Shown here: piece after piece, positions 3,301 to 56,600 of the stretch
Layout of the letters: every line of letters starts with the position of its first letter
How positions within the stretch are numbered: the stretch's first letter is position 1
From: Gordionus sp. m RMFG-2023
Lineage: Eukaryota > Nematomorpha > Gordioida > Chordodea > Parachordodidae
Length of the DNA: 64,000 bases
Assembly (NCBI RefSeq): GCF_954871325.1
Contig: NC_088776.1
Location: forward strand, 45,526,569 to 45,590,568
Direction: 5' to 3'
Notes under the pieces: generated by a model
What the model saw: the letters and a program-made list of their open reading frames with translations, nothing else
Told to the model about the DNA's origin: nothing
The model's database searches: none
Program-made: the position numbers and the translations under genes

Positions 3301-5301
3301 TAATTTGCTTATTCTCCATCTATTTATTTTATAGAGATAGGTTATCAGCCAACGATATGCTCTCGGTCAAAAAAGTCATGGAACACGTGTACACCAAAAT
3401 ATTGCCTTTTTGTTATGGTCAACACAACATTCTAGAATACCAAAATCCCAATTCTCATATGTCCAATGGGATGCATAGTTGGATGAAATTATTGATAAAT
3501 TCATTTTTCTTTTTTTTTGAGGGATGGGAGAGGGATTCATTGTTTCTTTTTATGCATCTTTTTTCTTTTTTAAGCCTTTTTGCATCAAATTTTAAGAATT
3601 CCTACTAGCTAATAATCGCAGCTAATTTTTTATCAATATTTCGAGCTTTTTTAATAATTACTCTTCACAAATTACTTTTTCGATAATTATTTTCCAAAAT
3701 TTATCTATTATGCTTATAAATATTTATTTATAAGACATTTTTTTAAATTATATAATTTTAGTCACGAATGGTCCCAGTAGTTCTAATTCATCAACCACCA
3801 ATAATTACAAATTATATTCGTCGAATTCATCTCCAAATTCCCCTAACCTTAGACGTAAACTTAGAAATAATAGTTGCATGGGTCATCACGAACCGTATAA
3901 CACATATTCCATGGTTTAAACTTATTTAATATAGCGATACTTTTATATGCTGTATTTACCATGTAATCTCGACTCATTAAAAAAAATTATTGTTAAATAT
4001 ATAGAGAAGGTCGATTTTTTTTTAAGATGGGACGTATTCCAAAGAATATTCTAATAAATTATATTTTCAATTATTTACTTTCAGGTGCTTTAAATATTTT
4101 TGAATCTGTAAATCATTCCAAATTTCAATGAAATTTTTGGCATTTGGATTCTAGAATTTTAAAATTGTTTTGTAAAGATGTTTCTCTTTTTTGAGTGGGA
4201 TTAAAAATTCCTTATATTTGGAAAGACCCTAAAAACATCCATCTTTAAAAATATTTGATATTCACTAGTGAGTCTAGTTAAATAGCAATACACATAGTTT
4301 GGTACAGGACCCCTTTGAACTAAGATAAATCTAGGAGAAGAACCTCTTTTTAAAAATATTCTAAACTGGCATACTATTAAGCTATTTTAATTTAGAAAAA
4401 TAGACAATTCTTGATTCGATTCCTAGCTGTGAAATGTCAATACTGCATATACAGACATCGTTTATTTATTTACTTTTAATGGCTATAAATTTTGTCATAT
4501 AGTCTTCCGATACAATTGTTTCTGACCTTAACATCCGCATGACAACATAAATATTAGCTTGGTAATTGATATCAGTATTTCTTGTTGATCTTTTACGACG
4601 ATGATAATAATCTTTTGCTTACAATATAATAATACTCTTTATTGTCGACACGATGCTCAAAACCAAGATTTATCGTGGATTTATCTATTTATTAAACTGG
4701 AGATAAATATCATATAACTGTAACATATATTTATAAGATATAAATAGGACTCCTACCCGGATGAATCATGTAATTGTATCCCTTATTTTCTTGTTTTAAG
4801 CCCCCAATCGTTATTTTTACTGATATATATTTTATTTAAAATTCACTTTTTTTAAAATATAAAAGGATAAAAGTGAAAAGGATGGATCATCATCTAATTT
4901 ATCGGCCAACTTTGAAGAAAAAATCCAAATATTTTGTCAGAATCAAGTAAAAAAAATTAATAGCATTTTATCTAAATTTAAAATTATTTCTTTTGAATAA
5001 AAATGCAGCATTAACTCCCACTATAAAGTCCTCCATAAGTCAGAAATTTAAAAAGTTTTTAACTGGAAACTTTTTAAATTATAAGTTTTCTAACGCATGT
5101 AAAAACTGCATTTTTTGTTTTTGATTTTCCCAGCCCTGCATAAGACCTTATTAGCGGTTTAGAGATTTCTACATTATGAATAAATATATTCAATATTTTT
5201 AAATAAAGCTTTTAGATCCTGAAATGGACTTGAGATCCGTCAAACATTTTTATTGGAAAGGATCTAGTGATATGATATTATATTATTTGCCTTTTAAATG
5301 A
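341..5301 (+). CDS. WDR48: WDR48/UAF1 homologue, last five exons (5' part outside window)
   Basis: WDR48 (UAF1) is the WD40 cofactor that activates the deubiquitinases USP1, USP12 and USP46. Only its C-terminal, post-propeller part is present here. Exons: 341-417, 3335-3477, 3762-3913, 4866-4946 and 5209-5301 (TGA). All join in phase (0/2, 2/1, 1/0, 0/0) at GT-AG sites. Recognition rests on the conserved block [21 protein letters not shown] (human WDR48 has [21 protein letters not shown]), then [11 protein letters not shown] and [16 protein letters not shown], which match the end of the SUMO-like domains. Between these blocks lies a Ser/Asn-rich linker (third exon) unlike the human one. The ORF through the second exon is extended artificially by intron 2; the donor after codon ATGCATA restores phase. 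Intron 1 is 2.9 kb and holds MITE-like repeats. About 182 residues are visible. The first visible exon is short and rests on phase plus the motif [13 protein letters not shown]. Confidence 0.88.
1329..1718. mobile_element. MITE-like element with inverted ends, WDR48 intron
   Basis: The left end (about 1329-1360) and right end (about 1686-1718) are inverted copies sharing CAATATTTTTGTCGATATTA, preceded by a GCTGCA-type terminus. The interior is AT-rich and non-coding. This is the pattern of a roughly 390-bp non-autonomous DNA transposon. A target duplication is not clear because both extreme ends have changed. Confidence 0.6.
2400..2620. repeat. Diverged copy of the CGGCTCGATTTGAG hAT MITE family
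   Basis: The segment resembles the intact MITE at 30175-30393. It shares the order AACTCAATATTTAAGCCAGA, a GAGC-TTTCG block, a 'gccatttatgggcaaaatc' block and a closing region. The ends are eroded and no target duplication is visible. It lies in intron 1 of the visible WDR48 part. Confidence 0.5.
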
Positions 5302-5534: not shown

Positions 5535-5920
5535 AACTAAATTATTTATTATCAATCAAATCATCAGATGAGTATTTTTTCATATAATATGTTATTCTTG
5601 TAAGAATCTGTACCTCATAAAAACAAAATAATCGCCTTGGCTATTTTTAATATAAAAAAGAATAAAAAGGGAAAACGAAATTAAAGCTAATTTGTTAAAA
5701 TAACTAGATAGACAATGAATTATTTGCATTCGATTTAACTTTTACGCACATTAAATTTTCTGTCATAAAATTTGAAATGCTACAACTAAAAAATTTTAAT
5801 ATAATATTGTAGCGAAAATTAAATTTGATGATTGTAAACTTTAATGAGACTGAATTGAAGATAACTACTTAAATTATTTATAAGATTTACAAATAATACA
5901 ATAATAAATTAATAATTAAA

Positions 5921-19269: not shown

Positions 19270-21505
19270 GTTGTATTCCATATTAAATCAACCAAAAAAA
19301 GTCGATTCTCAACCTGACCCCCTTCGATTTTTTTAAAAATTTGCATGTTGGTAGTATATACACTAATTAATAAAAATGTAAACTTTTACTTTTTAAATCG
19401 CCTTACTTTATGAGATATGGCCATCTCTAGAAAGGCGGAAATTCCAAAATACACTATATTTAATTTTAAATATGTCAAAAAGTAATTAAGCTAAAGACAT
19501 GATTTAAATTTTATCAAATAGCTCTTTATTATGATATAAAATTTATTTTATTTAAAAAAAGTCTATTACCAAAAACCGGAAATGGCTATAAAATAAAAAT
19601 TGCTCTTTTTTTCTTTTAAATTTTTTTACAGATAGACATTATACTTCTTAATATTTGTACAAAATCCTAGATTGGGAGGAGTACTGGGCCAAAAGTTATT
19701 ACACTTTAAATATAATTAGTATGGCTTAAATCCTATATTATACCAAATATATAGTAATTTACGAAACAAATAAAAAGAAATTTCATTTGGGATCGGGCTG
19801 TATTTTTTTATAAATCTTTCTGGCCGTGTTAGAAAAATTAGGCCCTATGCAGATCACTAGTAGACATTGTGTCATATTTAGCACATAAGTTTAGCTATTT
19901 TATTTTAGAAGGAAAATAATTGTAAAAGTATTTATAACTTTATTTAGCTAATTAATTGGAAATTAATATTCTAATAAACATATTAATTAAATAATATCAT
20001 ACATTAAATAATCTAATGAATTAGAATAAAATTTGACTTTCATTTTTCCTTTCATTGGAATAAATGAATGATATTTTTGTGTCCCGGGAATTCATTTGGC
20101 CATTAGAAATCTATTTTCAAGATTGATTTCCATTCTTAAATATTCTACGTTGCTAACAAATATATAATTAATTCCCGGGATATTGATTATCGCATAATTA
20201 TTTAAGTCAATAGGAGTTATTATATGATTTTCATGAGGACGTTGCAGGCTTGCTCTAGCCGCCAACCTCTTAGTAATTCCACCTAAACTATCGCAAGGAG
20301 TTTTGCCATGTGCAGTTGCCAAAAATTGCCATTCTGCCTTGATCCTAAAATCATTATAATGGTTGTAGAGGTTTACAAAGTTTTTTTTTGTTTTTATACT
20401 GGGTAACAGCTCCATCAGAAAAATAAAATATTATTGAAATCTTATCAAATCTTTCTTTCAAGAATATAATTAATTTTATTTGAAATAAATGAAAGGAACA
20501 AATATTGTGTTTGAGACAATCTGATATAATCACGTAACTTAAATGTTTGATGATATCGCCTTCGCGGTAATAAATCATAAATGATGCCAAACATAATTAT
20601 TTTATTTTAATTAATTATTAAGTAGATTAAAATAATCTTTAAAATGAAAATATATTTCTGACGATCCAATAATAATTAATCTGACAATGAAAAATAAACT
20701 TCATCTTTCACTCACAGAGTGGCCAGGTCAAAAAATCTCGAATTTAAGAAGAATTTGGGACGAATATAATCTTTAGGTTGGGGTGAAGAGATTATTGAGC
20801 TCACTTTTTATTATCATAGTTGTTACTTTTTACAAAATCTTATTATTTATTCCTTATAATGCCTCCAAATCAAGGCGTTTTGAGTTATATTTAAAATAAT
20901 ACAATACAACTTGGTAAATGTTGTTTTGAGTTTTTTAACATTTAATAAATGCAAAATAATCAGATTTTTTAGGATTTTAGTTTTAATGCTATTATTCACA
21001 TATATTGCCCACTTTAAAAAAAATAATTACTCTATATTTGGTATAATATAGGATTTAAGCCATACTACTTATATTTAAAGTGTAATAACTATTGACCCAG
21101 TACTCGTCCCAATCTAGGATTTTGTACAAATATTAAGAAGTATAATGTCTATCTGTAAAAAAAAATTTAAAAGAAAAAAAAAGCAATTTTTATTTTATAG
21201 CCATTTCCGGTTTTTGGTAATAGACTTTTTTTCAATAAATTAAATTTTATGTTATATTAAAGAACCATTCTAGAGCTATTTAATAAAATCAAAATCATGT
21301 CTTTAGCTTAATTACTTTTTGAGATATTTAAAATTAAATATAGTATATTTTGGAATTTTCGCGTTTCTAAAGATGGCCATATAGTAAGTTGAGAATTAAA
21401 ATTTAATATTTTTACTAGTTAGTGTATATACTACCATCATACAAATTTTAAAAAAAATCGAAGGGGGTGGGTTGAATCTTCAGTTGATTTGATATGGAAT
21501 ACAAC
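19270..21505. mobile_element. DNA transposon with ~480-bp inverted repeats and 4-bp AGAT duplication (Sola-like)
   Basis: The ends GTTGTATTCC and GGAATACAAC open long inverted repeats (about 19270-19755 and 21030-21505) that include 'aatcgaagggggt'-type and 'ccaaaaaccggaaatggct'-type blocks. It is flanked on both sides by AGAT. Between the arms lies a transposase-like fragment on the minus strand. Four-bp duplications and long inverted repeats fit the Sola superfamily, but the assignment is tentative. It is 2236 bp long, nested in the Merlin-like element. Confidence 0.75.
20092..20590 (-). pseudogene. Transposase-like fragment (SDG..QYKN ... HGK..CD.LGG..KR family)
   Basis: Two overlapping frames carry one protein: YFSDGAVTQYKNKK in the first, then NFVNLYNHYNDFRIKAEWQF and TAHGKTPCDSLGGITKRLAA in the second. 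They are joined by a frameshift in a run of A around 20375-20390. This Asp-Gly...HGK...CD.GG..KR signature occurs in widespread uncharacterised transposase-like proteins of animals. The Asp residues suggest a DDE/D nuclease. The N-terminal half is missing, so it is not active. Confidence 0.6.
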
Positions 21506-29600: not shown

Positions 29601-32600
29601 AAATTACTCAAAACGTTTTTAGTACAAAGTCACAAATTATATATCATTTTGTAGCCCTCTAAATTCTCCTTTAATAAAATTCCAAAATTATTTTAAAATT
29701 ATCTTCAGTGTTTTTATATTTTCGGTAAAACAAAAAATATTTTGAGAAAGGCCATATTTAACGATGAAACTCACCATATATGTTTATTATCCATATATTT
29801 AAATATTTAAGTAAAAATATAAATGGAGAAAATAAGAATTTAAATTTTATTTAGTTTTTATAATTTTAAAAATAAATCAACAACTATAGAGAGCTTTTGA
29901 AACAATGAAGCTTACAAATATGTTTATTATCAAATATATTTAAATATTTAAGTACCCGCTTTGCCATTGCCACCCTACCCCGCTACCGCGGAATTAGGAT
30001 CAAATGAAGAATTAGTCACTTCTTATAATTAGGATTAGCCCACAAACTATAGTTAAAAATCTGGGAGGTGGGTAATGAATCATAGTATATTATTATTTTA
30101 AACCTACAAAACACCCTTTATTTTATCCATTGCCTTTTGACCCTTTCTATCGTTTTATCCCTAGTCATTTGATCTAGTGTTGTTAAACGGCTCGATTTGA
30201 GTCGATTTTTCAAAACGGTTAACTCGAAATTTAAGCAAGAAAAATATTGCCTGAGCCTCGAGATTTCGTTAATAGATATTCAAACCTTTGTGCCACCTAT
30301 GAGCAAAATTGTAAGGTTTGCCTACTATTCTTCCTAATAAAATATTGAGTTAGCCGTTTTTAAAATCGGCTCAAAGTGAGCTTAACAACACTAATTTGAT
30401 CGATCCGAGAGTAGTAGACTTATATAAATGACTCTAGAACATTTACATTGAGACAGAAACTCCTAACAACTTTAAATCTATAATATGGGCAATAAGGAAC
30501 CTATCATGCAAATTTTTAAAAATCGAATACATTTATTTTTCTTTAAAGCAAATAATATTAAACATATTTTGGCTCTTGCCTAATTCTAATTGAATATACG
30601 GTAGAATATTTTTAGGTAAATTTGAGTAATCAATACGTTAAAAAGTTAGATATTTGGTTTCTTACCTAGCTGGCCATTCAGCCCCCCCCCATTACTTACT
30701 TAATCCTTTTGTTAGAATATGGATATGTTTATATAAAAAAACTAAATTCATATATTAATATGCAAATGTTTTTTTTAACTATAATATTAGTTATAGGCTC
30801 AGAGTTGTAATGTTGAGGATATCGAACAATAAAGGATATAATTTGCATAAGGCCATCTTGAGAAGATAAGTATAATTGATATTCTTTTTCATACTTTAGA
30901 GGAACCCCTTCATTAATCAATGATATTCCTTTAATTTTAAAATAAAAAAATATAATATACAGCCGAAATATATTTGTAAACCCTAGCAATCATGATGCGA
31001 AATATATTAACTGAATCTTTATATATATATATATATTAAATACGATTGCTATTAGTTTATAATCGTATATTTCTATGTAGTAGCAAAAATCATAATATTA
31101 GATGATTTAAATTTTTTTATAAAAAATTAAGCTCGAGCTAATGATTACTTAGTAATTGATTATTGATATCAGAGATCTGCAAGGCCAAACCTGTTAAGAT
31201 TTTTATGTATTTCCCGGACTAGCCCGTTATTTAAATGTTTGTTCGGTCTGTCAAGCCCGATAACGGGCCTGCCCGGCCAGATTAAATATTATTAAAAGTT
31301 AGTCTCGGCCATAAAATTTTATGAAATATAAACCCAGCTCTTTAAAATTTTACAAAAAGTCTGCCCCAAATCCGTTAAATTTTTTTGCACTCATTTTCCG
31401 GCCATTACATATTTAATTATAATTTTTCCCCAATGTCAATTAAGGCTCTTTCTTACTACTCGATGGTTATCTATTTTTATAAGAACCATTCTATAAAACA
31501 ATTGTGCTTTGATATCTGTATAGTGTATTTGGAATTGGATCCTATCATGTTATAAATAACTCGTGAATTTACTATTTTATTCATAGAATTAGTATTTTAG
31601 TTAAACTGCTCCTAAAATAAAAAAATATCTCTTTAATGCTCGGACTGTCGAATTAAAATTTTATGAAATGTCCGGTCAGGGCTATAATATTCTATATTTA
31701 AATGGAGAATGATAAATTTTTTTTATAAATTTAATTTGGTCAAAAATAAAATAAAAAGAAATAAACTCATATTTTAAAGAATCAGGTAGTGTTGACAGAG
31801 CTGACCCAAATTTTGGGTCGTTTTTTTCGACCTCGACCCGAGTCCAAGCCGAAAAAAACGACCTCGACCCAAAATATGGGTCGTTTTTTTCGACTTCGAC
31901 TCCAATTTTGGGTCGTTTTTTCGACTCCGACCCGAGTCCAAGCCGGAAAAAACGACTTCGACCCAAAATATGGGTCGTATTTTTCGACTCCGACTCGAAG
32001 TTTGGGCCGTATTTTTCGACTCAGACTCAAAGTTTGGTTTGTTTTTGCGACTCAGACTCAAAGTTTGGTTTGTTTTTGCGACTCAGACTCAAACATCGTG
32101 TCGCTTTTTACCACTTCAACCAAAGTTGTGGTGGTTTTATTCAATCGACCCAAAATATGGGTCGTTTTTTAAAAGACGACCTAAGGTTTGGGTTGCTTTT
32201 TTTCACTTGACCTGACCCATATCTACATTTTTTTCGTCCAAAAGGCTTCTAAGTGTTGACTCCAACTCCAATAAATATATAAATATAAATAATATTTATT
32301 AGATATCAATATAAATGGGCGGGAAAAGTTACTTAAAGCTTCTATAAATCTAATCAATGGCAATTGTCATCGTAATTTTTTTAAATTTTTTTGATATAAA
32401 TTAGTAAAAATATAAATTGTGAACATGTTAAATTAAAATTTCAGTGAAGATCTACCATAGAAAAATGACAATTGTCATAATCTTTATTTTTGAACTTTTT
32501 CGAATTTTTTTAAAGCAAATATGTAAAAATATATATTGTAAACATGTTGAATTTAATTTTCAATTGAAGATGACCCAATGACAATTGTCATAATTGTTAT

Positions 32601-35600
32601 TTTTGAACTTTTTCGAATTTTTTTAAAGCAAATTTGTAAAAATATATGCTGTAAATCTGTTTTATAATTTCAGTGAAGATGTGCCATAGAAAAGTGACAA
32701 TTGTCATAATCTTTATTTTTGAACTTTTTCGAATTTTTTTAAAGCAAATATGTAAAAATATATATTGTAAACATGTTAAATTAAATTTTCAATGAAGATG
32801 ACCCATAAAAAAATGACAATTGTCATAATTGTTATTTTTGAACTTTTTCGAATTTTTTTAAAGCAAATTTGTAAAAATATATGTTGTAAATCTGTTAAAT
32901 TATAATTTCAGTGAAGATGTACCATAGAAAAGTGACAATTGTCATAATCTTTATTTTTGAACTTTTTCGAATTTTTTTAAAGCAAATATGTAAAAATATA
33001 TATTGTAAACATGTTATATTAAATTTTCAATGAAGATGACCCATAAAAAAATGACAATTGTCATAATTGTTATTTTTGAACTTTTTCGAATTTTTTAAAA
33101 ACTAATTTGTAAAAATATATGTTGTAAATCTGTTAAATTATAATTTCAGTGAAGATGTACCATAGAAAAGTGACAATTGTCATAATCTTTATTTTTGAAC
33201 TTTTTCGAATTTTTTTAAAGCAAATATGTAAAAATATATATTGTACTCATGTTAAATTAAATTTTCAATGAAGATGACCCATAGAAAAATGACAATTGTC
33301 ATAATTGTTATTTTTGAACTTTTTGATTTTTTTTTAAAACAAATGTGTAAAAATATATGTTGTAAATTTGTTAAATTAAAATTTCAGTGAAGATGTACCA
33401 TAGAAAAGTGACAATTGTCATAATCTTTATTTTTGAACTTTTTCGAATTTTTTTAAAGCAAATATGTAAAAATATATATTTTTCTCATGTTAAATTAAAT
33501 TTTCAATGAAGATGACCCATAGAAAAATGACAATTGTCATAATCTTTATTTTTGATCTTTAAAGCAAATATGTAAAAATATATAGTAAACATTTTAAATT
33601 AAATTTTCATTGAAGATGACCCATAGAAAAATGATTATTGTCATAATCTTTATTTTTGAACTTTTTCGAATTTTTTTAAAGCAAATGTGTAAAAATATAA
33701 ATTGTAAACATGTTAAATTAAATTTTCAATGAAGATGACCCATAGAAAAATGACAATTGTCATAATCGTTATTTTTCAACTTTTTCGAATTTTTTTAAAG
33801 CAAATGGGTAAAAATATATGTTGTAAATATGTTAAATTAAAATTTCAATTAAGATATACCATAGAAAAATCACAATTGTCATAATCGTTATTTTTGAACT
33901 CTTTCGATTTTTTCAAAGCAAATATGTAAAAATATATATTGTAAACATGTTAAATTAAAATTTTAGTGAAGATGTGCCATGGAAAAGTAATAATAGCCAT
34001 TGTAATTTTTTTAAAATATTTTTAAGAAAATGGTTAAGATATAAATTGTAAATTATTTTATTATAATTTCAATGAATATGTGCCATAGAAAAGTGACAAT
34101 AGTCATAAATATTTTTATACTCTATTAAATCCAAGATGAAAAATCTATATTTCATTATAAATGAACCCTAGAAAAAGATTCATAAAGCAAACTATCTCAT
34201 ATAAATACTTTTTCAAAATCAGAAAACTGATATTATATAAATTTAGGGTTTCAAAGCGTGTTGTTATAAGGATTACCGTAATTTATAAAGTAAAGTAGCG
34301 TTCTATTAACCATTTTTACATTACCTCATAAAAAAATATTTATTGAAACATCAATAAAAATATTAATATGAATTTTTTTTAAGATTTATAATATAACGTC
34401 TATAGTATTTTTATTTCAAAAAGAATTTTTTATCTAGCTATCCTGTTAGGTATAGTATTATTTAGCGTTACCATTAGACTATTAAGTTGTCAATGGATTT
34501 AGTCTAATTAATAAATTCTACTTGAAACTTGTGGGTGAACAAACATCCAGATAATAATTTTTAAAATAGATGATATAATGAGATGTTAATATATTTTTTG
34601 TAATTTTTAATATAATTCTTAAACATCTTATGGCCGGAGACTGTGCAAGAAAATCAATTATCACATAAACTTATCTAGTTTTGTTTCATATTTTATTTTA
34701 TAGATTAACGATTGGACTACACATTAATGTATTAATTTAAATATTTCTTCGTTGAAGCAACTAGTTTTGATAGAACCTAAATTCTTCTTAATAAAACAAA
34801 GTGAATCCCAGTTACAATTTATTGTGTAATTTTTCTAAAGAGTTCACAATTCAATTTTTTTTACAAACTAAAGTTAATATAAAAAACTATTTTAGTTAAA
34901 GTCAAATATTATTAAAACACGAATGTTCTCCAGTATTCATAAAAAACAACAGTTTGAAACAAGAACCCTTACTATGCTTAAAACATCTAAAATCTTTGTT
35001 ACCTTTATAGTTTAAATATTTTTATTTAATTATATATGATATTTATTAATATACAAAAATTTATATTTTTCTATAAATATATACAGTGGCGTCACTAGGG
35101 AGGGGGCGCAGGGGCTCAAGCCCCTTGAAGCAAAAAAATTTTTTTTTAATGGTTCCTTAATATCCATCCCTTTAAACTAAAAAGAACTTTTTTTGATTGT
35201 CCCCTGTTTATTATAATTCTATTAAGTAATATATAGATTTAATTTTATTATTTAAAAATTAATAAGACTATCTAAATTTTATTAGATTAGATTAATACAT
35301 ATTTATATTTTCACTATGTCAGCTTGCAATTAAATTCTTTGTTAAAAATTAAATATCAATACCATGCATAATGTTTAAATATCAATTTAGCATTAACAGT
35401 TGAAGTTTAATTGATTTTTATTAATTAAATTATTATATAACCCTAATTAAATAAATATAAAGATTTATTAATTGAAAATTAACAAATTTAATATTGTAAG
35501 CCGAGTTTAAAATCACTATTTAAATAAAATGACTTTGCGATTTAAAAATTTAAGCATTAAAGACTTTATGAAAAAAACTAAAGATAAAAGTAGCAATAAT

Positions 35601-38600
35601 CTTGAGGACCAAAGAAGAGGATTCAATAATAAAGCTGGTGATGAACAAAGTATATTTTATACAGTTTTTAAAATTCAAACTTTGATTTAGTTGAAAGACG
35701 ATTAATTGTAGTTTTAAAAGATATAAATATTGAAAACAAAAATGTTAAAAGAAAGAAAATAGGTAAATAAATTTATATATAAGTCTGTGTCCAAAATGTT
35801 TTGAAAAAATCCTTAAAATTTTCACAAATTAATAACAAAACACTTTGGACATTTAAGTTTTAAAAAATAAAAATTTATTAGTTAATTATCTATTTTAATG
35901 GAAGGTTTCTTTTTCACTTGATCATAATTGAAGTTATATGTTTTTCCTATTTCCTCCCAAATTTGCCTAATTTCTATAGAATTTCTATTTAAGTCATTTT
36001 TCACCAGAGTATTAAACAATATTGATTTCTTTAGTTTTCAAGTTAAGCAAAAATTGCTTTACAATATATTTTCACATTTCAGGAGCAGGACACTAGAAAT
36101 GGAAATTTTTTTTAAAATTTTTCTATTATAATCACATAAGGTGATGTCAAAATATTAGCTAAATAAAACATAGTAAATATTTTCTATATAAATAGTCAAT
36201 ATCTTAAAAAATCATACACTATTATTCTTTTTACATTAATAAAGATAATATTGGCTAAATTGTTTACTCAATCATTCTTTCATAATTTGATAATTATATA
36301 TTTATTTGTTTATCCTAACTTAATAATAAATTATATTTTAATAAAAATGCTAAATAAATTTAGAATAGTTTGCTTATTTATATATATTTTTGAAAAATGG
36401 ACACTATAATATGGAATATTACTTTTTATATATTATATTTACAAAAATAAATACACTGAAAAGAAATACATTTTAAAATTAATCTTATTTAGATTCATTG
36501 AATAATGAAGAAAGTATTGTGAATGACATGATTGTAAATAATGTAAGTACAGAAGGAAGGAAAATTAATTTATATATAAGATATTTTATTTATAAAATAA
36601 TAGAAGCACTATGTGTGGCTCAATCTGAAGATATATGTGAGATCCAATGTACAGATATCTCTGAATGTATTAATTTTTTAAATATAATTAAATTAAATAT
36701 AAAATTTTATATAGACATAGAATCTGAAGAGGATACTACAACAAGCCAGATTCATGGTAGCAGTAAATATAAAGGTATATAAATAATCGGTTTTATCACT
36801 TGTAATTCTTTAGACGCGAAATTTTTTATATCAGCAATTTAAAATACTTTATACTGTAGTAAATCGATTTTGTATTGAAAAATTTGTAGAAATGTATTGT
36901 TTTAATTATTTATATTCTAGTTTTAATTATTTATATTCTAATCTTAATTATTTATATTCTAGTCTTAATGATATTAATATTCTAGTCTTGAATCGCATAT
37001 TTATATTCTAGTCTTAATGATCAATATTCTAGTCTTAATTATTTATATTCTAGTTAATTTTGTACGTATAATATAATAAAAAACAAAATATGAAAATAAG
37101 AATAATCCTTCAAGAGTTTAGTAATTTTTAAAAATATATTAATATATAACCCGACCGAAGGCCGGGCATAAGGCGCGAAATTAGGGGGTATAGGGGGCGA
37201 AACCCCCTCATAAATTTTTTTTAGATAAGCCCCCTGATTGTAAAGGCTAGAGACGCCCTTGAATATATACATATAAAAATTATGTCCAGAATTGATTGTT
37301 CATTATATTCGTATTCCAAGAATTTAAACACAAACATTGTTTAAACGTCTCTGAGGCCAAACGATTTCTTTTTTTAGTAATGGTGTCCACCCCTCTCGAG
37401 AAGACACGCTTGCTCGCAACAGATGTGCTCTGTTGCGATAGAAAATCCTTCGCCATTATGGAAAGGTAGGGAAAATGCATGGAATTACTTCTCCACCAAT
37501 CCAATACTATAGTCGAGGCTGAGGCGACTGGATCAGCTAGGTATTCCGCGATCTCGTCAACCATCGGAATTAAGGAAGCTTTGCTAAAACATATAATAAA
37601 TTTTTTTTTAAATTAAATATATCTACTCTTTGAGAACATTTAAAAAAAGTTGTAGTATAATGAAAAAATATATACCTTCTGAGACTTTTTAAAATAGTCG
37701 TTGACATCATTTCGAAATTATGGTTTTTTTCTGGTATTTCGGGCACCTGATTAGAACGGTATTTACCGTATAAAACAATCAACTTTTCATAATAGCACAC
37801 TTTATTCATCCAAATAGGTATAAAAGTTTTTTTGATCCGAGGATCTAAAAAACTACATAGATAAATCTCAAAAGTATCCATAATATTAATATATTTTTGG
37901 CATTTAACCGACATAAGTCGAGCCGTTTCAACAATCGTATTATTATTGTTAGTATCAATATTTGATACCAACAATGCTTGCATTGTGTCCAGATATAAAA
38001 GATACATGCCTATTGTTGAAGAATTTGAACTTATTTCACACGTAATTTTATAAAAAGGGTGCAAAAATTCTTCAATATCCTTCAACAATTTTACCTCTTC
38101 AGTATTTATGAAAAAACTGTCATTGATACATTGCTTGCCCAATTTTATAAGGGCTTCTATATTCTATAGAATTAAATATTAAATAATTAAATTTTTAATG
38201 CTATTAATACCTTATTGATTTTATTTAGCATGAGATATTTGGAATTCCATCGAGTTGATACATCTAATGGAATTTTGCATTTACAGTTTTCAACAAAATC
38301 CTACATCAAAGAAGGACTTTTATGAATTTTTTCACCAACAGCTCAACTTTTTCCATATCTGTTGAGATAGGTGATAGTCCTTCTTGTACAATAATATTAA
38401 TAATATGGGCAAGGCATCGTATAGTATTAAAATTAGATTTATGTGTTTCCCGAATATTGTCACGTTGAAGGTAATACTGACGGATATTCTTTATCAATTA
38501 GTTTATACTCCGCCAGTATTGTTTATCAATTCTTTAACATCTTCACCCGTGTGAGGATGGGCAAATTCCACTATTGATAATAGGGAGTTGACTAAATCCC

Positions 38601-41600
38601 ATTTATCGTTTATATAATGGACCGTTATGGCGCAATAACTAATTGAATTATTACTGGTCCATATATCGGTCGTTATTGCCATCTTGTATATTTATAGATT
38701 GTCGAAGATATTTAATATATTGCATTTTGCCTGGTTATATATTATATTTAAATATTTCACAGCAGTTTGTTTGCACCATATTTTGGTGCTTTTGTTCAAA
38801 TATGTAAAGATTTCCTTGATAATATTTACTATCATAGGTTCTAAAAGAAATATTGTACGTTGATGACAAATTTCAGTATTAATTTATATTAAATGAAAAT
38901 TATCCTCCGTTGCAAGTATTTCGTGCCTCTATAATGGAATCTGGCAAAGGTGGTGAATCATTAACTGCTTCAGGATGTTTGGTTACAAGATGTTTGCGCA
39001 AATTGGCTAAAATATATCTATATAAATTATTAAATCAACCAAAAGAAATTATATTCTAAACCCTACCCCCATCTCGATTATTTTAACAAATTTGATATGT
39101 TGGACAGCTTAAAAATTTTTGAAAACCTGAGTGGAGCAATAACAAATCTATGACCAACTGATATAATATTTTACCATTTATAAGTATGTGGAATATTGGG
39201 GATATTTTAAAACTAAAGTCCTAAAATATCCCCAATATTTCACATACTTTATAAATGGTAAAAATCATATCATTGGTGCTACAATAAGTAATTGCTCCAC
39301 TCAAGTTTTCGAAAATTTTTAAGCTGTCTAACTATACAGAGTTGTTAAAGTAATCTGTATCTAGATAGTTTTTTAGAATATAATTTGTATCTGGTTGATT
39401 TAGATACTTTTTATAGATACATTTTATATACCCCTTTGCTTATTATAACCAAACATTGAAGCAGTTAATGATTCACCACCTTGCCAGATTCCATTGTAGG
39501 ACAAAACTTGCAACGGAGGATAATTTTCATTTTAAATGAACTAATACTGAAATTTGTCATCAACGTACAATATATATATATAGTACCTATGATAGTAAAT
39601 ATTTCAATTACATATTATGAACAAAAGCACCAAAATATGATGCAGACAAACTACTGTGAAACTTATATATAAATAGATATATATAACCAGGCATTAATGC
39701 AATATATTAATTATCTTCGAGTTCAACTATAAACCATACAAGATGGCAATAACGACCGATATATGGACCATGGTAAATATTATTTTACAACTAAGTTATT
39801 ACGTTTATATATCGGTCCAGATCTATATAGACGATAGAATGAGGATTTAGTCAACACCCTAGTATCAATAGTGGACTTTGCCCATGGCTCACATGGGTAG
39901 AGGATGTTATAAGAATTGATAATCACAATACTGGCGGAGTATAAACTAATTCTCTGACGGTAAAGTGTCCTGCCGTGTCTACCCATGATAATGGATCAAA
40001 AATAGTTCCGGCAGCGAATCCTGATCAATCCTGCAATATCGTGAAGCACATAAGGCTAATTTTAATACTATACGATGCCTTGCCCATATTATTAATATTA
40101 TTGTACAAGAAGGACTATCACCTATCTCAACAGATATGGAAAAAGTTGAGCTGTTGGTGAAAAAAATTCATAAAAGTCCTTCTTTGATGCAGGATTTTGT
40201 TGAAAACTGTAAATGCAAAATTCCATTAGATGTATCAACTCGATGGAATTCCAAATATCTCATGCTAAATAAAATCAATAAGGTATTAATAGCATTAAAA
40301 ATTTAATTATTTAATATTTAATTCTATAGAATATAGAAGCCCTTATAAAATTGGGCAAGCAATGTATCAATGACAGTTTTTTCATAAATACTGAAGAGGT
40401 AAAATTGTTGAAGGATATTGAAGAATTTTTTCACCCTTTTTATAAAATTACGTGTGAAATAAGTTCAAATTCTTCAACAATAGGCGTGTATCTTTTATAT
40501 CTGGATACAATGCAAGCATTGTTGGTATCAAATATTGATACTAACAATAATAATACGATTGTTGAAGCGGCTCGACTTATGTCGGTTAAATGCCAAAAAT
40601 ATATTAATATTATGGATACTTTTGAGATTTATCTATGTAGTTTTTTAGATCCTCGGATCAAAAAAACTTTTATACCTATTTGGATGAATAAAGTGTGCTA
40701 TTATGAAAAGTTGATTGTTTTATACGGTAAATACCGTTCTAATCAGGTGCCCGAAATACCAGAAAAAAACGATAATTTCGAAATGATGTCAACGACTATT
40801 TTAAAAAGTCTCAGAAGGTATATATTTTTTCATTATACTACAACTTTTTTTAAATGTTCTCAAAGAGTAGATATATTTAATTTAAAAAAAAATTTATTAT
40901 ATGTTTTAGCAAAGCTTCCTTAATTCCGATGGTTGACGAGATCGCGGAATACCTAGCTGATCCAGTCGCCTTAGCCTCGACTATAGTATTGGATTGGTGG
41001 AGAAGTAATTCCATGCGTTTTCCCTACCTTTCCATAATGGCAAAGGATTTTCTATCGCAACAGAGCACATCTGTTGCGAGCGAGCGCGTCTTCTCGAGAG
41101 GGGTGGACACCATTACTAAAAAAAAAAATCTTTTGGCCTCAGAGACGTTTAAACAATGTTTGTGTTTAAATTCTTGGAATATGAATATAATGAACAATCA
41201 ATTCTGGACATAATTTTTATATGTATATATTTATAGAAAAATATAAATTTTTGTATATTAATAAATATCATATATAATTAAATAAAAATATTTAAACTAT
41301 AAATGTATCAAAGATTTTAGATGTTTTGAGCATAGTAAGGGTTCTTGTTTCAAACTGTTGTTTTTTATGAATACTGGAGAACATTCGTGTTTTAATAATA
41401 ATTGACTTTAACTAAAATAGTTTTTTATATTAACTTAAGTTTGTAAAAAAAATTGAATTTTGAACTCTTTAGAAAAATTACACAATAAATTGTAACTGGG
41501 ATTCACTTTGTTTTATTAAGAAGAATATAGGTTCTATCAAAACTAGTTGCTTCAACGAGGAAATATTTTAATTATAACATTAATGTGTAGTCCAATCGTT

Positions 41601-44600
41601 AATCTATAAAATAATATATGAAACATTTTAAAAAATAACGATGACAATTGCCATTCTCCATTGATTAGATTTATAGAAGCTTTAAGTAACTTTTCCCGCC
41701 CATTTATATTAATAATATCTAATAAATATTATTTATATTTATATATTTATTGGAATTGGAGTCAACACTTAGAAGCCTTTTGGACGAAAAAAATGTAGAT
41801 ACTGGGTCAGGTCAGGTGAAAAAAAGTAACCCAAACCTTAGGTCGTCTTTTAAAAAAACGACCCATATTTTGGGTCGGATTGAATAAAACCACCACAACT
41901 TTGGTTGAAGTGGTAAAAAGCGACCCGATGTTTGAGTCTGAGTCGCAAAAACAAACCAAACTTTGAGTCTGAGTCGCAAAAATACGGCCCAAACTTCGAG
42001 TCGGAGTCGAAAAATACGACCCATATTTTGGGTCGAAGTCGTTTTTTTCGGCTTAGACTTGGGTCGAGTCGAAAAAAACGACTTCGACCCAAAATTTGAG
42101 TCGATGTCAAAAAAATCGACCCATATTTTGGGTCGAAGTCGTTTTTTCGGCTTGAACTCGGGTCGAGGTCGAAAAAACGACCCAAACATTGAGCCGGAGT
42201 CGAAAAAAACGACCCGAACTTTGAGTCGGGGTCGCGACTCGCGGCGTTTTAACAACACTAGAATCTGGGATGTGAACCCTCCTACAAAAAAAGGGTCCAG
42301 GTCCGGGTACAGGAATAAAATTTAAAAAGGACCCGGGTCCAGGGTTGTTAGGGAACATAAAAATAATGACTCAAAATAAAATTATTTTTTCATTCATTTA
42401 TTATTATACTTCAATATATACATATTCATAATTTACAAATGAATTTATATTTTAAATGTTTTATTCAATCGCACAATCATAATATTTTCTAAAATATCAT
42501 CCTTGAGATTTCCACGTAAATTAGACAATATATATTTCAAAGATGAAAATTTCACGTTCTACCCTTACCTAAAATAGATAGTTATCTTTATAAAATTATT
42601 GTACTTGTGTCGCCGGTACAGCCATGAAGATTCTAGATAAGATATATAATTCTGGATATATTGAAGAATTTTCTTCCCAGAATTTTAAAATATTTGTATC
42701 CTTATTTATTCTCTTAACTTCTGAGAACTTTTCTATTAAAGATGCAATAGGCATTTTTTGATCCTCCTTTCTATCTGATGATAATTTGATTTTTTTTTTA
42801 TCAAGAAGTAAAATTTCAAGATCATCAATGTTGCTATCATAATTATTATTATCACTACAACCAGTAGGTATTGTCGCAGCCTCCAATATATTGTAAATAA
42901 TGGAGTTTAGCGTATGTCATAAATCCTTAAGATGGTCTTTAGACATTTATTTTTGCTCAATACTCAATAAAACTTGATATCGAGGGTCTAAATATATAGA
43001 AGCGTATACAACACTATTTTGCAAATATTGTTGCTATCTAATTTTCATGTTTTCTAATATTTCGTATAAAAAGGACTGTAAATTTTTATAAATCTAATCG
43101 GCATCTAATCCATATGCCATAAAAATCAGTTAAACATAATTGTTCTGATTGTAATCTTAATGTTGTTATTTTTAAAGGAACTAATACACTAGTAAGGTCC
43201 TTTATTTGCCACCAATCAACTTCCGACAAAATGACTTCACATGCTCCTTTAATAAAATCATTACAGAAATCTTTCAGACTTAATAATCTTTCTGGCATTA
43301 TACAAATTGAGGACCAACGTGTTGTGCATTATCATTCAAATTAAAATATACTTGCACTACAAAATTATTCACTTTCAAAATAATCAAAGAATTTCTATAA
43401 CATAGAATATTAATAAATTTACAAAATAAAATATTATTACGTACACTAGAAAATAATTTATGATATCAATCTCTAAATAATGGAAGTCGATGAAGAAAAT
43501 TGAAAGAAAAACGCGAAGATAAAATAAATGATTCCACAAAAAAAAGTTAATAAAATTTATATTATTTTAAAATTTTTTTATGACACCTAGAACCCTTGGA
43601 CCTTCTACTTTTAAAAAGAGTCCGGGTCCGGGTACAGCCAAAATACGAGGGTTCAGGGTCCAGGTTCGGGTTCACATCCCTGATATTAATGAAATTCAAA
43701 TTTAAGGATTTGCGAGTTTCAGCTTGATTTATTTTATTGTGTATGAATTGTCCGGCCAGTACGAGCTTATGTACGAATTTCCCGACCAGGCCCGCCTGGC
43801 TTTGCCACTAATAGGTATAATAATTAATATATTTTATTATTATGTAAACGTTCGACATCAACAGTGGTTTTTGAAAAAATAGGATTATTTAAAGATAATA
43901 TGAGCAATTTTAACATTTACCAGATACGCAAGCTATATTTTTGCAAGTCATGCATCTTTTGGTGATCAATTTGATCGTAGGTTGCTTTTTATCATTCGAT
44001 TCTTTATTATCACTTTCTGCTGACTTTCTATCCATAACTTTGGTTTTAGTTAGAGAGCTATTCTCGGAAGGAATGATGATTTCCACCCAATGAAAAAAGA
44101 GAGTGGATATTTTGCAAGTAAAAATTAGATAGTTGAACGTTAAACAACGCGGATGTTTGGAATGTATATTATGCTTTGCAAGAATGTTGTTTTGGGGTAT
44201 GGGCTAGAAATAATAATGCAAATTTAAAATTAATACAAAGTTTTAAAAAATTAATAGAGTAGGTAGCAGGGTTTAAATTAATACATTTCGCCATACATTA
44301 GTAAAATTAATTTTTTCTTCTGTATTAAAACCTCAGGCTCTTTGGGGGTTCCAGTGGCCAAGGAACCTACTTTTTAATAAACAAGTAACAAAAAATACAA
44401 ACCAATAGTTCAGTTATTAATAAGGCGTCAATAGATAAATCATCAGAGCCGTCAAAAATTGTCATCTCTGTCAGATTAATGGGATTAACTTGAGTCGTTT
44501 TGGAGGATAAGTTTAAGTAATTACAATCAACGTTTAAATTAGGAGTTAAAGCTATGTCGAATAAAGTTACCTTGAGTCTACCGTACGAATTACCCATGAC

Positions 44601-50600: not shown

Positions 50601-53600
50601 CTTATTTTATTTCTAACTTTTTGCGATTTCTTTACTTTATTTGTATCTTTTCTCAATTTATTTTTCTTCTCATTTTTGATAATTCTTTTGTATTTTTAAA
50701 AATAATTTATAAATTTAGGTCCATTTTTTTAACAATTCTTTACGTTTTTTTTTCATCATACATATGTCGTAATTTTAATATCCGGGATCTTCACGGGATT
50801 TAAAGTGATCCCTTTAAAATTTCAATTTTTTAAAGGATAAAGAACTATACGGCATTATCACGTTTGAACCATGATATAGAAGAATCTAATTTTAAAAAGC
50901 GTTTTTCGCGCGTTTCGTTTTTTAATTTTATTGTTATTCATTAATTGTCAATGTTGTTTTTTTTGGCCTTATGAATTAAGATATATCTAACATAGGGTAT
51001 CAATCGATAGCTAATCAAAAGATCTATTCAACTGGAATTCAATATCTCCCCCATAATGGGCTGGTTTAGGTCTTGGGGGATCAGAAATATTTTTATCAAA
51101 ACAAAATATCGATATGGGTATTAAATAAAAGCTAAATTTAATATGGTTTGACTGAAAGTCTTCATTCTTGGTCTGGATGGGTATGACTTGGTCTGGGTGT
51201 AAAGAGGAGGTGTATGGAGGGGGGGGGTGTAAAAATAATTTTTTTTGATATGGGTATCAAATAAAAGGTAATAATAATATTTTTTTATTGTAATAATAAT
51301 AATCACTCATAGAGGGCGGGTCTAGGTCTTGGGGGGTCAGGAATATTTTTATCACCACAAAATATCGATATGAGTATCAAATAAAAGCTAATTTAAATAT
51401 TTTTAGATTGAAATTATTCATTTTTTTTCTTGATGGGTATGACTGTCAGGCCCTCAACATATTAACAAAATGTCTAGTTGAATAGAATTTACAGAAATAA
51501 AAGAGAATGAAGATAAAACAATTTTTTAAATCTTTTTTCGGTTCCACAGTCATACCCATCAAGACAAAAAATGAATAATTATAATCTAAAGATATTAAAA
51601 TTAGCTTTTATTTGATACTCATATCGATATTTTGTGGTGATAAAAATATTTCTGACCCCCAAGACCTTTTCCAGCCCATTATGGAGGTGAGATTGACTAA
51701 CAGTTGAATAGATCTTTTGATTAGCTATCGATTGATACCCTATGTTAGACATATCTTATTTCATAAGGCCAAAAAAATCAACATTGAAAATTAATGAATA
51801 ACAATAAAATTAAAAAACGAAACGCGCGAAAAACGCTTTTTAAAATAAGATTCTTCTATATCATGGTTCAAACGTGATAATGCCGTATAGTTCTTTATCC
51901 TTTAAAAAATTGAAATTTTAAAGGGATCCCTTTAAATCCCGTGAAGATCCCGGATAGTTATAATCCCTTTAAAAATTACGACATATGTATGATGAAAAAA
52001 AAACGTAAAGAATTGTTAAAAAAATGGACCTAAATTTAAAAATTATTTTTAAAAATACAAAAGAATTATCAAAAATGAGAAGAAAAAATATAGTAAGAAA
52101 AATAAATTGAGAAAAGATACAAATAAAGTAAAGAAATCGCAAAAAGTTAGAAATAAAATAAGAAGGAATGACAAAAATAAATAAAATTTAAGAAAAATTT
52201 TAAAATTTATATTTTTTTAAAAAAAGATTTAAAAAATTACTATTTTCCTTTTTTGAATGGGAATTTTCCTTTTTTGATCGTCACTTTTCCTTTTCTTTTA
52301 GGAATTTTCCTTTTTCGATTGACACTTTTCCTTTTTTGATTGGACCTTTTCCTTTATTGTTTGACACTTTTCCTTTTTTGATTGAACCTTTTTTGTTTGA
52401 TACTTTTCCTTTTTTGATCGGACTTTTTCCTTTCTTTTTGGGAATTTTCCTTTTTTGATTGACACTTTTCCTTTTTTGTTTGGACCTTTTCCTTTTTGTT
52501 TGGACCTTTTCCTTTTTTGATCTTACCTTTTCCTTTTATGATTGAAACTTTTCCTTTTTTGAATGGGAAACCCTGTAAGCCAATTATACGAAATTAACCC
52601 TATCATGCACATCACAAGCCTAATTTTTTTTAGTAAAAATAATAAAATTCTATTTTTAAATTAAAACTCGTAAAATAGTGTAAATATGTTAATTAGAATA
52701 TTTTATACATCCCTTTCGACTTTTTATTCAGATCTCTCCCCTTCTTTCCTCTTTATATATAAATATTGTATTTATTTTTTCTTAATCACAATTTTAAACT
52801 TCTATATTTTGTTTTATTCGTCGATTTACTCTTTTAATTATAATTTTATTAATTGATTAAAATATTTAAATAAATCATAGTGTATTATATTAAAACATTA
52901 TGATATAATATATGAAAAAACGAATGGCTTATTCATATCAGGATTTTCTTAAGAGGGAGGGGAGGGGGTGAATAAATTTCTGTGGGGGGAGGGGCGTTCT
53001 GTCGTATTTTCTTAGCCTATATATAGCTAGAAAATATTTTTAAAGGATAGGATAATTTTAATAAAATACGAAATTGGTTACCGATGGTATAGAAAAAAGT
53101 CAGAAACAAATAAGAAATATATTTTTACTAATTTGTATAATAAATAATAAAATCCATATATACATTAATACAAAAACGTAGTAATCTAATAACTAATAAT
53201 GTAAGATCTAATTTTTTTTTTAAATTTGATAATTCATTAATTATTTCAGAATTAACTGGTTAACTGGTATTAATTCCCGATGAATATTTAAGAGGGCTAA
53301 ACTAGTGAATTTTATCTTTAATCTCATCCGAGGATGACAAAATTTGAAAGTTATTCAACAATTTATGATTCAATAAACGTTCCTTAATTTGGGTTAAAAT
53401 GTATCCATAAGTGGTATAAAATCGTCATTATGTTCAATTAGATGTAGCCCCCAAAGATTTCAATATATTAGAGTATATATGGACCACTTAATAATTATAA
53501 ATTTTCAAGAGACCCTTGTAAAGAGAAATTAAGATTTGAATTTATTGATTTAAAATTGGCGCCTACTCACCTTCACAAAATTAGGCTTATTGTACTTCAC

Positions 53601-56600
53601 AAAATTGGGCTTATTGTAAATATTGTGTTTTATTTGGATCAAAATATGTTGGTGAAGGTGAGCAAAAATTAAAGTGATTGGTGAATTGCCCATATATACA
53701 TTGGAAAGATGCGGAAGAGAATTTTGAAAACCTCAAAACCCGCAAGAGTACCAATTTCATAAGCCACCCTTTAGGGTCTCATATTTTATACCCTTATAAC
53801 TACTTATTAATTTTATAATGATCAAGGTAAAAAAAAAATAGCAAGTGAAAATAAAAGAAAAATATCTCCTATTATAGATTCAATTACATGTGAAAATCAA
53901 TGCTTTGCATTATGAGGACATCTAGATTTAGGTTCTATAGTTAACAATTATACCAATGAAAATGATGAAAATTTTGGTGAAATTCTCCGAAAACTAGCCA
54001 TTGGGGATGAAGAGATCAGGATTGACTCATTGTGCTACGTATTTAAGCCATACTATTCAAAACAAAATCATAGATGTGTGCAATGATTTGATATTTAAAA
54101 AGCGTAGTATCCAATAAGTCTCCATTCTTTTCAGTTTTGACTGGTGAATCAACAGACGTATGTGTAGAGCAAATGTCGTTTTGTGCTCGATATTTATATT
54201 CAGAAAATGTATATTTAATTTGTATAAAGTTATTATCATCTATAAAGATGAACATGAAGTTCAAATAAGAGGATATTTTGCAGTTTATTCCTATTCAAGA
54301 TATGAGAAGCGAAGATCTTGCAAACATAATTGGATTTTATCTAAAAAATTTTTAATTAATGTCAATTCTATACGGAGACAAGAATATCATGGTGCCCCGG
54401 CTATGAGTGGTCATTTATGTGTGGTTCAATCTCAATGGAAAAAAAATACCCTCCATCAATTTATGTTGAGTGTGCGTTTAATTCTCTAAATTTTACTATT
54501 TCTAACTGTTGTTCAATTCCTGTTATTAGAAGTACCATTGGTTTATTAAAATTTTATTTTAATTATAAAATATTATATAAAAAGATACAATAGGCAACGT
54601 GTAAGATATTTTCAAGTATCCAATGAGATCCAATGCAAGTTGTCAACAAGAGAAAAATTTATTTGGGAACATTGATCATAAAATTGTCAAAATGTGCCCA
54701 AAAAGATGGATTTTTCGACTAAAATCAATTACGGTTTTTCTTGAACTAATAATATACATGATAAATGTTGCGTTCGAAGAAATACATGAATGTGCAAAAA
54801 CGCCAGTGGTGATAGAAGGAAATAAAATAATGAAAGCAATTCCAGATCCTGAAATTTATTGGTGTTCATTGCATTAACACGCTCTTCGGCTACACAATAT
54901 TATTATACAGAGCCTTGCAAAAGTGAACCAAGATATGAAGCATTGATCTTAGCAGAAGATGCAAATGATGCTGTTTTACCAATTTTTTAAGATTTTTAAC
55001 ATGGTTCAAAAAAATTGCATTCATATAATATGATAATAAACAATAGATTGGCATCAATATTCCATTTGTTTTTGTCACCACTGGCGTTTCCCATTCACGT
55101 ATTTCCTCGAATACAACATATCACGTTTATTAGCTCAAGAAAAACAGCAACTGATTTTAGTAGTAAGCTCCATATTGTTGGGTACATTTTGTCAAGTTTA
55201 TTATGACGGTTCCCAAATTCTTCCTTTATTAGGCAATCCTTGAGGACATTGGATCTCTTTGGATACTTGAGAATATAATACACTTTACTTATCGTTCCTT
55301 TTTAAGTATATGATTATAATTAAAATAAAAGTTTAATAAACCCATGGTACTTAATAACAGGAATTGAGCAACAGTCCGAAATATCAAGAAATGAGACGCA
55401 GAGTGAACATGAATTGCTGTAGGGTATTTTTTTAATTAAGATTGAACCCCACATAAATGGCCACTCATAGCAGGGGCACCATGATATATTGTCCCAGCAT
55501 GAATTGATAATTTTAATTTTTTTATGATAAAAACCAGTTATGATCACAAGACATTCGTCTCTCATATCTTGAATAGGAATAACCTGTAAAAATTTTCTTA
55601 TCTGAATTTCATCTATATAGATGATAATAAATTTATACAAAATAAATATAAAGTTTACCATTTTCTGTATATAAATATCGAGTACACAACGACATTTGCT
55701 CAATCCCACATATTTCTGTTGATTCATGCACCAAAACTGAAAATAAGGGAGACTTATTAATATTGGATACTATTATTTTTAATATCAAATCATTGCACAC
55801 ATCTTGATTTCGTTTTGAAAGGTAGGGCTTAAATATGTAGCATTTTTTGGTTCAATATGTTAATCCTGATCTCATCTTCTTCAATGGATTGATCCAAAAT
55901 TCCCGGTTTAGAGACATTTTACCATGCGACACTTTATGAAGGGACCAATATGTATTTATTTTTATTTTTTAAGAAGTCAAAACTTAAAAAATATATACAT
56001 TAAGTATAATTATTTAAAAGCAATATATAAAAAACTAACAAAAATTAAAACTTTACAAAAATTAAAAATCGATAAAATTTAAATACAAGAAATTAAAAAT
56101 ATTATAGAGGCATAGATTCGTGAATGGATATGCAATTGGATCTAAATTATTTCAAGAGATATTTCTTGCCTGAGATAAAGATTTATGGTCGTCGAAGATG
56201 TAAAAGTTGTTTCCCTAAAGTTTTTAGGGAAAGTGAAGCTATGCCAAAGTTATCTAAAGTGGCAGTGACAAAGGTAAAAATATGGCATTTTCTAGTAAAA
56301 AATGTGTGAGTCGCTTCGAAGTGTTGGCGGCCTATAGTCCCAAGCCAGATGTAGTTTTCTAGCCCAATGAGTGGATGTTATTCCACCTGGAAGTTTGTTG
56401 TCTAAGCTATTGAGTCCTACAGACTCTAGCATTGCCTGAATGAGAGTACCTTTCGTAAGAGAGCATTATTTGAAAGATGGTGCGAATATCTGCCTTTAGA
56501 AAATCTGCAATAGACTTGAATTTGTAATAAACAGCAGATGTGTGGGGTAACTATATTTGCGTTGAGAGAGAGACCAATTGAGATCAGTAGTTCTTCTGGG

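What the first reader, a model, noticed from the sequence alone, without database searches (positions are those of the whole stretch)
31787..42260. A 10.5-kb hAT transposon that is one giant palindrome with two divergent transposase genes
The sequence shows short inverted ends, an 8-bp duplication with one mismatch, arms of about 3 kb of homology meeting at a 12-nt spacer, and a transposase copy in each arm pointing outward. Ordinary hAT elements have one transposase and short inverted ends. A whole-element inverted duplication that still has target duplications suggests either that it transposed as a palindrome or that it inverted-duplicated after insertion.
Basis: partly seen in the sequence, partly recalled or inferred. 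Interest (0 to 1): 0.88.

Follow-up and report, generated by a model that had tools for sequence, protein, structure and literature searches.

The report
Folded-back palindromic hAT transposon in hairworm
In a hairworm genome a cut-and-paste transposon carries its transposase half twice, as mirror images back to back, and the same thing appears to have happened separately to other transposon copies of several families in that genome.

Summary
Window 31787-42260 is a hAT element (ends TAGTGTTG, TSD GAATCAGG/GAATCTGG, 7 of 8) made of two inverted arms that meet near 39215/39216, each with an outward-pointing, apparently broken transposase. The arms are unequal (7.4 and 3.0 kb): the left one holds a nested 2.18-kb hAT-like insertion, the right one lacks a 119-bp repeat array. 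The host is the hairworm Gordionus.

(2) Self-inverted arms were verified at 10 loci in five hAT groups. Each of four junctions searched matched at full length and high identity only at its own locus.

Best reading: recurrent foldback inversion inside single hAT copies, made in place, sometimes capped by recombination with the element's other long inverted end. One palindrome has about 45 bp of inverted flanking DNA and no direct TSD, which fits. No palindrome was seen multiplied, but only four junctions were searched. The mechanism is inferred; hairpin stems at junctions were not found. A link with the known mitochondrial palindromes of hairworms is possible but untested.

The parts
31779..31786 (+). 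left target-site duplication GAATCAGG
31787..32373 (+). left terminus (TAGTGTTG, L-type, about 28 bp shorter than in copy C by my reading) and subterminal GACCC/GGGTC repeats
32374..34108 (+). 119-bp tandem array of the left arm, missing from the right arm
34109..35083 (+). segment S of the long inverted repeat; 34682-35083 is kept in the right arm
35084..37261 (.). nested hAT-like insertion (one end CAGTGGCGTC, 8-bp TSD AATATATA at 35076-35083 and 37262-37269)
   Evidence: absent from copy C
37280..38163 (-). left-arm transposase, 3' parts (PF14372, PF05699), pointing outward
38469..39215 (-). left-arm 5' part of the transposase gene and upstream DNA
39198..39320 (.). fold junction: reads on as in ordinary copy F, then turns into inverted left-arm sequence; exact turning point blurred
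39216..40024 (+). right-arm 5' part, 82% identical to the left arm, with clustered indels
40330..41213 (+). right-arm transposase, 3' parts (PF14372, PF05699), pointing outward
41222..42248 (-). right-arm inverted-end DNA (part of S and the subterminal repeats)
42249..42260 (-). right terminus TAGTGTTGTTAA (R-type)
42261..42268 (+). right target-site duplication GAATCTGG (1 mismatch)

Best explanation
The feature is a hAT element in which one half (inverted end plus transposase) was copied back onto itself in reverse orientation, replacing the other half. Inferred mechanism: a DNA end inside the element (after abortive excision, gap repair or a broken fork) folds back or switches template onto its own strand some tens to hundreds of nt behind, and synthesis copies the transposase half back outward. 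The copy is then joined to the opposite side, in some loci by annealing within the element's own long inverted ends, so that the original far terminus and target duplication survive, and in one locus apparently by joining in the flank. Shown: two arms, single-copy junctions (four tested), recurrence at ten verified loci in five groups, TSDs at some loci, inverted flank at one. Inferred: the fold-back step, the capping step and the trigger.
For: Ten loci with self-inverted arms: window, C, G, L027, L028, L029, L030, L031, L032, L037, in five groups: window with C, G and L032; L027 with L028 (73% DNA identity); L029 with L037 (76%); L030; L031; other pairs of the seven arms compared are at most 62% or unmatched. 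In the 150-match protein list (148 after merging; 150 of 577 candidates scored) neighbours under 6 kb apart were 9 divergent, 0 convergent, 0 tandem; 8 of those 9 were fetched and all 8 are palindromic. Mapping to ordinary copies shows one half running on and then turning into its own inverse: L027 on L034, L029 on L035 (with a displaced 52-bp piece), L028 on L036, L037 on L035. By my arithmetic on these maps the two breakpoints lie within 1 kb in the ordinary element in eight of eight measured: L031 about 87 nt, window about 140, L032 about 280, L027 295, L028 about 490, C about 620, L029 about 680, L037 about 810. Full-length, high-identity junction matches occur only at the own locus for the four tested. 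C_L groups with C_R (98/95), and winL with C_L is rejected, p 0.0019. L027's inner arms are 99.9% identical while other copies reach 97% at most. K29b has about 45 bp of flanking DNA as inverted repeat and no direct TSD. Window, C and K31 keep different left and right termini, and C and K31 keep perfect TSDs. Foldback inversions stabilised by secondary rearrangements including single-strand annealing are known in yeast (PMC7467729, abstract and section list seen).
Against: Inverted stems at the breakpoints of ordinary copies exceed shuffles in only 1 of 5 tests, and there not exactly at the junction. Long inverted ends are shown for H, I, J and L036 but not in the fetched stretches of L034 and L035, so capping by end homology is not general. 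The window junction is blurred: ordinary copy F aligns through it at 81%. Clustering of arms within a locus can also come from gene conversion, and winL with winR is itself weakly supported (56/24). The four fam1-type junctions (window, C, G, L032) could be central deletions of one older palindrome. K29b's right flank also matches the element's own interior, so the flank may be repeat DNA. L027 (K27) has lost its left terminus and shows no TSD.
Confidence: 0.6

Rival explanations
1. Two-ended gap repair: after excision both broken ends, because the inverted ends are homologous, invade the same half of the sister copy, each copies it inward, and the two new strands are joined end to end.
For: Explains the different termini and intact TSDs in C and K31, the nearly non-homologous junctions and the displaced 52-bp piece in L029. 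Abortive gap repair with template switching is an accepted source of defective cut-and-paste elements (PMC4168063, passage seen).
Against: Two independent stops need not lie close together, yet eight of eight measured pairs lie within 1 kb; no formal test was made. It does not explain the inverted flank of K29b.
Confidence: 0.22
2. The palindrome formed once and then transposed as a unit; other junctions are later central deletions.
For: Window and C both read through the same centre and both have TSDs. The four fam1-type junctions can all be written as deletions from the window type.
Against: None of the four junctions searched was found at a second locus. Grouping of winL with C_L, or of all left arms, is rejected (p 0.0019 and 5e-7). 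The five groups, at most 62% alike in DNA, cannot share a recent event.
Confidence: 0.12
3. Assembly artefact from palindromic or chimeric reads.
For: No read data could be seen. Contig C101 is a suspicious inverted contig including flanks. The window centre has clustered indels.
Against: Arms differ by roughly 1-19% and some carry private insertions and deletions; the flanks of C and K31 are joined by perfect TSDs; the window has no N.
Confidence: 0.04

Closest known systems
Foldback-like transposons, especially Galileo (P superfamily, Drosophila)
   Same: Long inverted ends, strong structural variation, gap repair and template switching invoked (PMC4168063, passages seen)
   Different: Here hAT transposases, and the transposase half is doubled. 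I saw no report of a two-transposase palindrome in the listings of searches; the library lacks most subscription papers.
Ac/Ds of maize (hAT) deletion derivatives and double Ds
   Same: hAT elements with 8-bp TSD and derivatives carrying filler DNA (PMC3260210, passages seen)
   Different: Ds derivatives named there are internal deletions and filler-carrying elements; double Ds is, as I recall it, one Ds inside another, not a fold of one half.
Foldback inversions (inverted duplications) in yeast and cancer
   Same: Inverted arms around a short loop, stabilised by secondary rearrangements including annealing (PMC7467729, abstract)
   Different: There gross chromosomal rearrangements via hairpins; here confined to a transposon, and hairpin stems were not found.
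Coding palindromes in hairworm mitochondrial genes
   Same: Same phylum; gain and upkeep of inverted repeats by an unknown mechanism, template switching proposed (PMC6649704, abstract start and passages seen)
   Different: Mitochondrial, up to 284 bp and perfect; here nuclear, kilobases and imperfect.

Membership tests
hAT superfamily | 8-bp target-site duplication | tested here: met
   Perfect at C (GCTGACAC) and K31 (GGGTAAAG) and at the MITE at 30175; 7 of 8 in the window; absent at K29b; not found at K27
hAT superfamily | hAT C-terminal dimerisation domain PF05699 | tested here: met
   Both window arms, E 1.9e-21 and 9.5e-21
hAT superfamily | RNase-H-like catalytic core | tested here: inconclusive
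   PF14372 26.5 bits (left) and 27.6 bits (right) against a cut-off of 27; catalytic residues not examined
hAT superfamily | short terminal inverted repeat | tested here: met
   TAGTGTTG(TTAA) at both ends in C, K31 and the window
Foldback-like elements | long inverted ends with internal tandem repeats | tested here: met
   119-bp array; roughly 3-kb inverted ends in H, partial I and J agree
Autonomous palindromic transposon | intact transposase | tested here: not met
   No ORF of 100 aa or more over the 5' part in either window arm
Autonomous palindromic transposon | same junction at more than one locus | tested here: not met
   four junctions of ten loci tested

The most novel reading that the evidence does not exclude
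Hairworms share one unusual DNA-repair or replication habit that makes and keeps palindromes in both nuclear and mitochondrial DNA, and hAT transposons, whose inverted ends let the fold be capped, record it as serial whole-element palindromes.
Probability: 0.2. Interest if true: 0.82.

Novelty: new variant of a known kind. Interest (0 to 1): 0.62.

Why it matters
It suggests that cut-and-paste elements can be repeatedly converted into kilobase palindromes with the transposase half doubled, a possible route to foldback-type elements. It gives a countable nuclear record of foldback inversion in a phylum whose mitochondrial palindromes were left without an established mechanism (PMC6649704, passages). 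Many loci have a definable junction and ordinary copies to compare, so the mechanism can be tested.

Tried and rejected
Organism: I first guessed grape phylloxera from size and chromosome number and spent one paper search on it; one search showed it is Gordionus. Loss of the hairpin-processing factor Sae2/CtIP as a cause: not supported, since one match of 32.6 bits over the cut-off, to profile positions 63-110 of 110, was found (0 of the 14 control genomes matched). The query for MRE11 did not complete. Pre-formed hairpin stems at junctions: above shuffles in only 1 of 5. A single origin of window and C by transposition: disfavoured, not excluded. C1:84.67M (L033) as a palindrome: dropped, no self-inverted match over the score limit in its 4 kb, although one search shows a 54-bp inverted piece there. 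Comparison with another element class: a gag-like retroelement gave 42 matches in 40 loci, none with both strands, against 17 of 110 hAT loci (Fisher p 0.0066). All three hAT queries came from palindromic loci; without those three it is 14 of 107, p 0.012. Ages differ too: young hAT loci give 5 of 33, p 0.016, or 5 of 54, p 0.07, with the young I/J family counted (groups assigned by me). Of the 17 loci, 13 have the outward order and 4 do not (C5:17.49M, C1:58.67M, C3:0.21M, C1:14.81M); C5:17.49M and C1:58.67M were asked for and not obtained.
Full report
What was checked. The window is G000:C2:45526569-45590568 in a 287-Mb genome of 267 contigs. A protein search returned relatives annotated from Gordionus sp. 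m RMFG-2023 on contigs of 31,144 and 93,749,283 bases, the lengths of contigs C126 and C1 here. Gordionus is a hairworm, phylum Nematomorpha.

Anatomy of the window element. It runs from TAGTGTTG at 31787 to the inverted TAGTGTTGTTAA at 42249-42260, between GAATCAGG and GAATCTGG. From the left: subterminal GACCC/GGGTC repeats; a 119-bp array 32374-34108; segment S; a nested hAT-like insertion 35084-37261 flanked by AATATATA; the 3' transposase parts on the - strand; the 5' part; the centre at 39215/39216; then the mirror image, without the array and part of S. Arm identity is 97-99% over 34750-38249, 93% in the next 250 bases and falls to 76-87% towards the centre; the outer repeats match at about 92%. 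PF05699 is found in both arms and PF14372 weakly.

Ordinary relatives. H (C1:22.15M) has one transposase and inverted ends (97.4% and 98.6% in the two main pieces, with weaker stretches between) that span roughly 3 kb on either side and include the last 225 bp or so of the gene; the partly fetched I and J (C3:38.73M, C2:54.15M) agree. I and J are identical in the two gene segments compared, so these copies are young. F (C126) reads through the window's centre into a right half that it shares with I, so F is taken as an ordinary copy; in it the two sides of the centre are not inverted repeats beyond shuffles. Relatives were also fetched for L027 (L034), L029 (L035, L044) and L028 (L036); L034, L035 and L036 show one transposase match each, L044 was not tested for this.

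Other palindromes. Copy C, C1:5128272-5136909, has both arms, two transposase copies, TSD GCTGACAC on both sides and different left and right termini. Copy G (C3:45.93M) is older, arms about 81%. L032 (C1:83.25M), L027 (C1:78.40M, main arm pair 99%), L028 (C1:6.20M, 97.6%), L029 (C1:57.09M, 96.7%), L030 (C4:27.17M, 90.8%) and L031 (C1:87.12M, 94.6%) are palindromic, and L037 (C2:20.64M, 87%) has a 1.1-kb spacer. In L032 only one arm keeps the 3' part of the gene. In the protein list (150 of 577 candidates scored) neighbours within 6 kb were 9 divergent, 0 convergent, 0 tandem; C2:28.31M, one of the nine, was not fetched. In three DNA lists 4 of 36, 8 of 36 and 5 of 38 loci carry matches on both strands within 6 kb. 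All three queries came from palindromic loci, and each list holds only the best 40 scored candidates. Thirteen of these 17 loci have the outward order. One of the other four, C1:58.67M, was not fetched, but its hit coordinates are exactly symmetric about 58675314.5 with the genes pointing inward, which looks like a fold that kept the other half. The predominance of outward pairs follows, I think, from geometry: in these families the gene reads towards its own end of the element, and a transposase query mainly sees folds that keep that half.

Junctions. L027 follows ordinary L034 to base 5920 and then its inverse from 5625. L029 has a 52-bp piece displaced by some 620 bp. L028 turns from L036 base 5320 to 4832. 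L037 turns from L035 base 2588 to 3394 (all). C leaves the ordinary sequence near window-equivalent 39258 and enters the inverted arm at 38637. L031 has a loop of about 87 nt (my arithmetic) that lies close upstream of its first transposase match, so its arms probably lack the 5' part of the gene. Searches with junction-spanning DNA gave full-length, high-identity matches only at the own locus for the window, L027, L029 and L031. For L027, L029 and L031 the other copies match in separate pieces. For the window, F aligns across at 81%, which shows that part of the right-hand side of the centre is ordinary sequence; compared with F and C both sides of the window centre have become more alike, as expected if a quasi-palindrome was corrected after it formed (inference).

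Transposed or made in place? In L029 (K29b) the two flanks are themselves inverted repeats for about 45 bp next to the ends, and the 8-bp flanks, ATAAATAA and TTATTTAT, are not direct repeats. That is what copying past the end into flanking DNA would leave. Against this, the right flank also matches the element's own interior, so repeat DNA may be involved. C and K31 keep perfect TSDs and unlike termini, which fits capping within the inverted ends, but also transposition of a palindrome. The tree of the 3' gene segment places C_L with C_R (98/95) and rejects winL with C_L (p 0.0019) and all left arms together (p 5e-7); the winL-winR pairing itself is weak (56/24). Within-locus gene conversion would give the same picture. 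I therefore hold in-place foldback at 0.6, two-ended gap repair at 0.22 and transposition as a palindrome at 0.12. The remaining few percent are an assembly artefact or something not considered.

Cause. The match to the Sae2/CtIP family argues against simple loss of that factor; MRE11 could not be tested. Papers on hairworm mitochondria report perfect inverted repeats up to 284 bp in genes (PMC6649704, abstract start and passages; PMC10380579, passages), and the first leaves the mechanism open. My searches of the held open-access library listed no paper that I recognised as describing nuclear palindromic transposons in hairworms or two-transposase palindromic hATs; listings were capped, that library lacks most subscription journals, and I saw no paper on the Gordionus nuclear genome. 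Whether nuclear and mitochondrial palindromes share a cause is speculation, stated as the novel case.

Limits. No reads were seen. Copy lists are lower bounds. The comparison with a retroelement (0 of 40 loci; statistics) is not age-matched and the hAT side is biased by query choice.

Noticed in passing
window 30175-30393: A 219-bp MITE with TAGTGTTGTTAA at both ends and a perfect 8-bp TSD ATTTGATC, presumably mobilised by the same hAT group.
   Followed up: partly
window 19628-21156, 50965-51770, 54033-55842: Three further inverted repeats with arms of 132, 227 and 509 bp and spacers of 1265, 352 and 799 bp; identity unknown.
   Followed up: no
G000:C101:1-15547: A small contig in which an element and both its flanks form an inverted repeat (98.8%); a real inverted duplication or an assembly fault.
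   Followed up: no
G000:C3:29355152-29356387: Another palindrome, 618-bp arms, 89%, no spacer, in locus D.
   Followed up: no
G000:C1:58673976-58676653: Hit coordinates exactly symmetric about 58675314.5 with inward-pointing transposase pieces: probably a palindrome that kept the other half; not fetched.
   Followed up: partly
L025, L026: A young hAT family: two copies 100% identical over both gene segments compared, with about 20 loci of like score; possibly still active.
   Followed up: partly
window 39216-40024: Right-arm 5' part on a long branch (0.22 against 0.04 for the left arm) with clustered indels: local error-prone copying or consensus error at a palindrome centre.
   Followed up: partly
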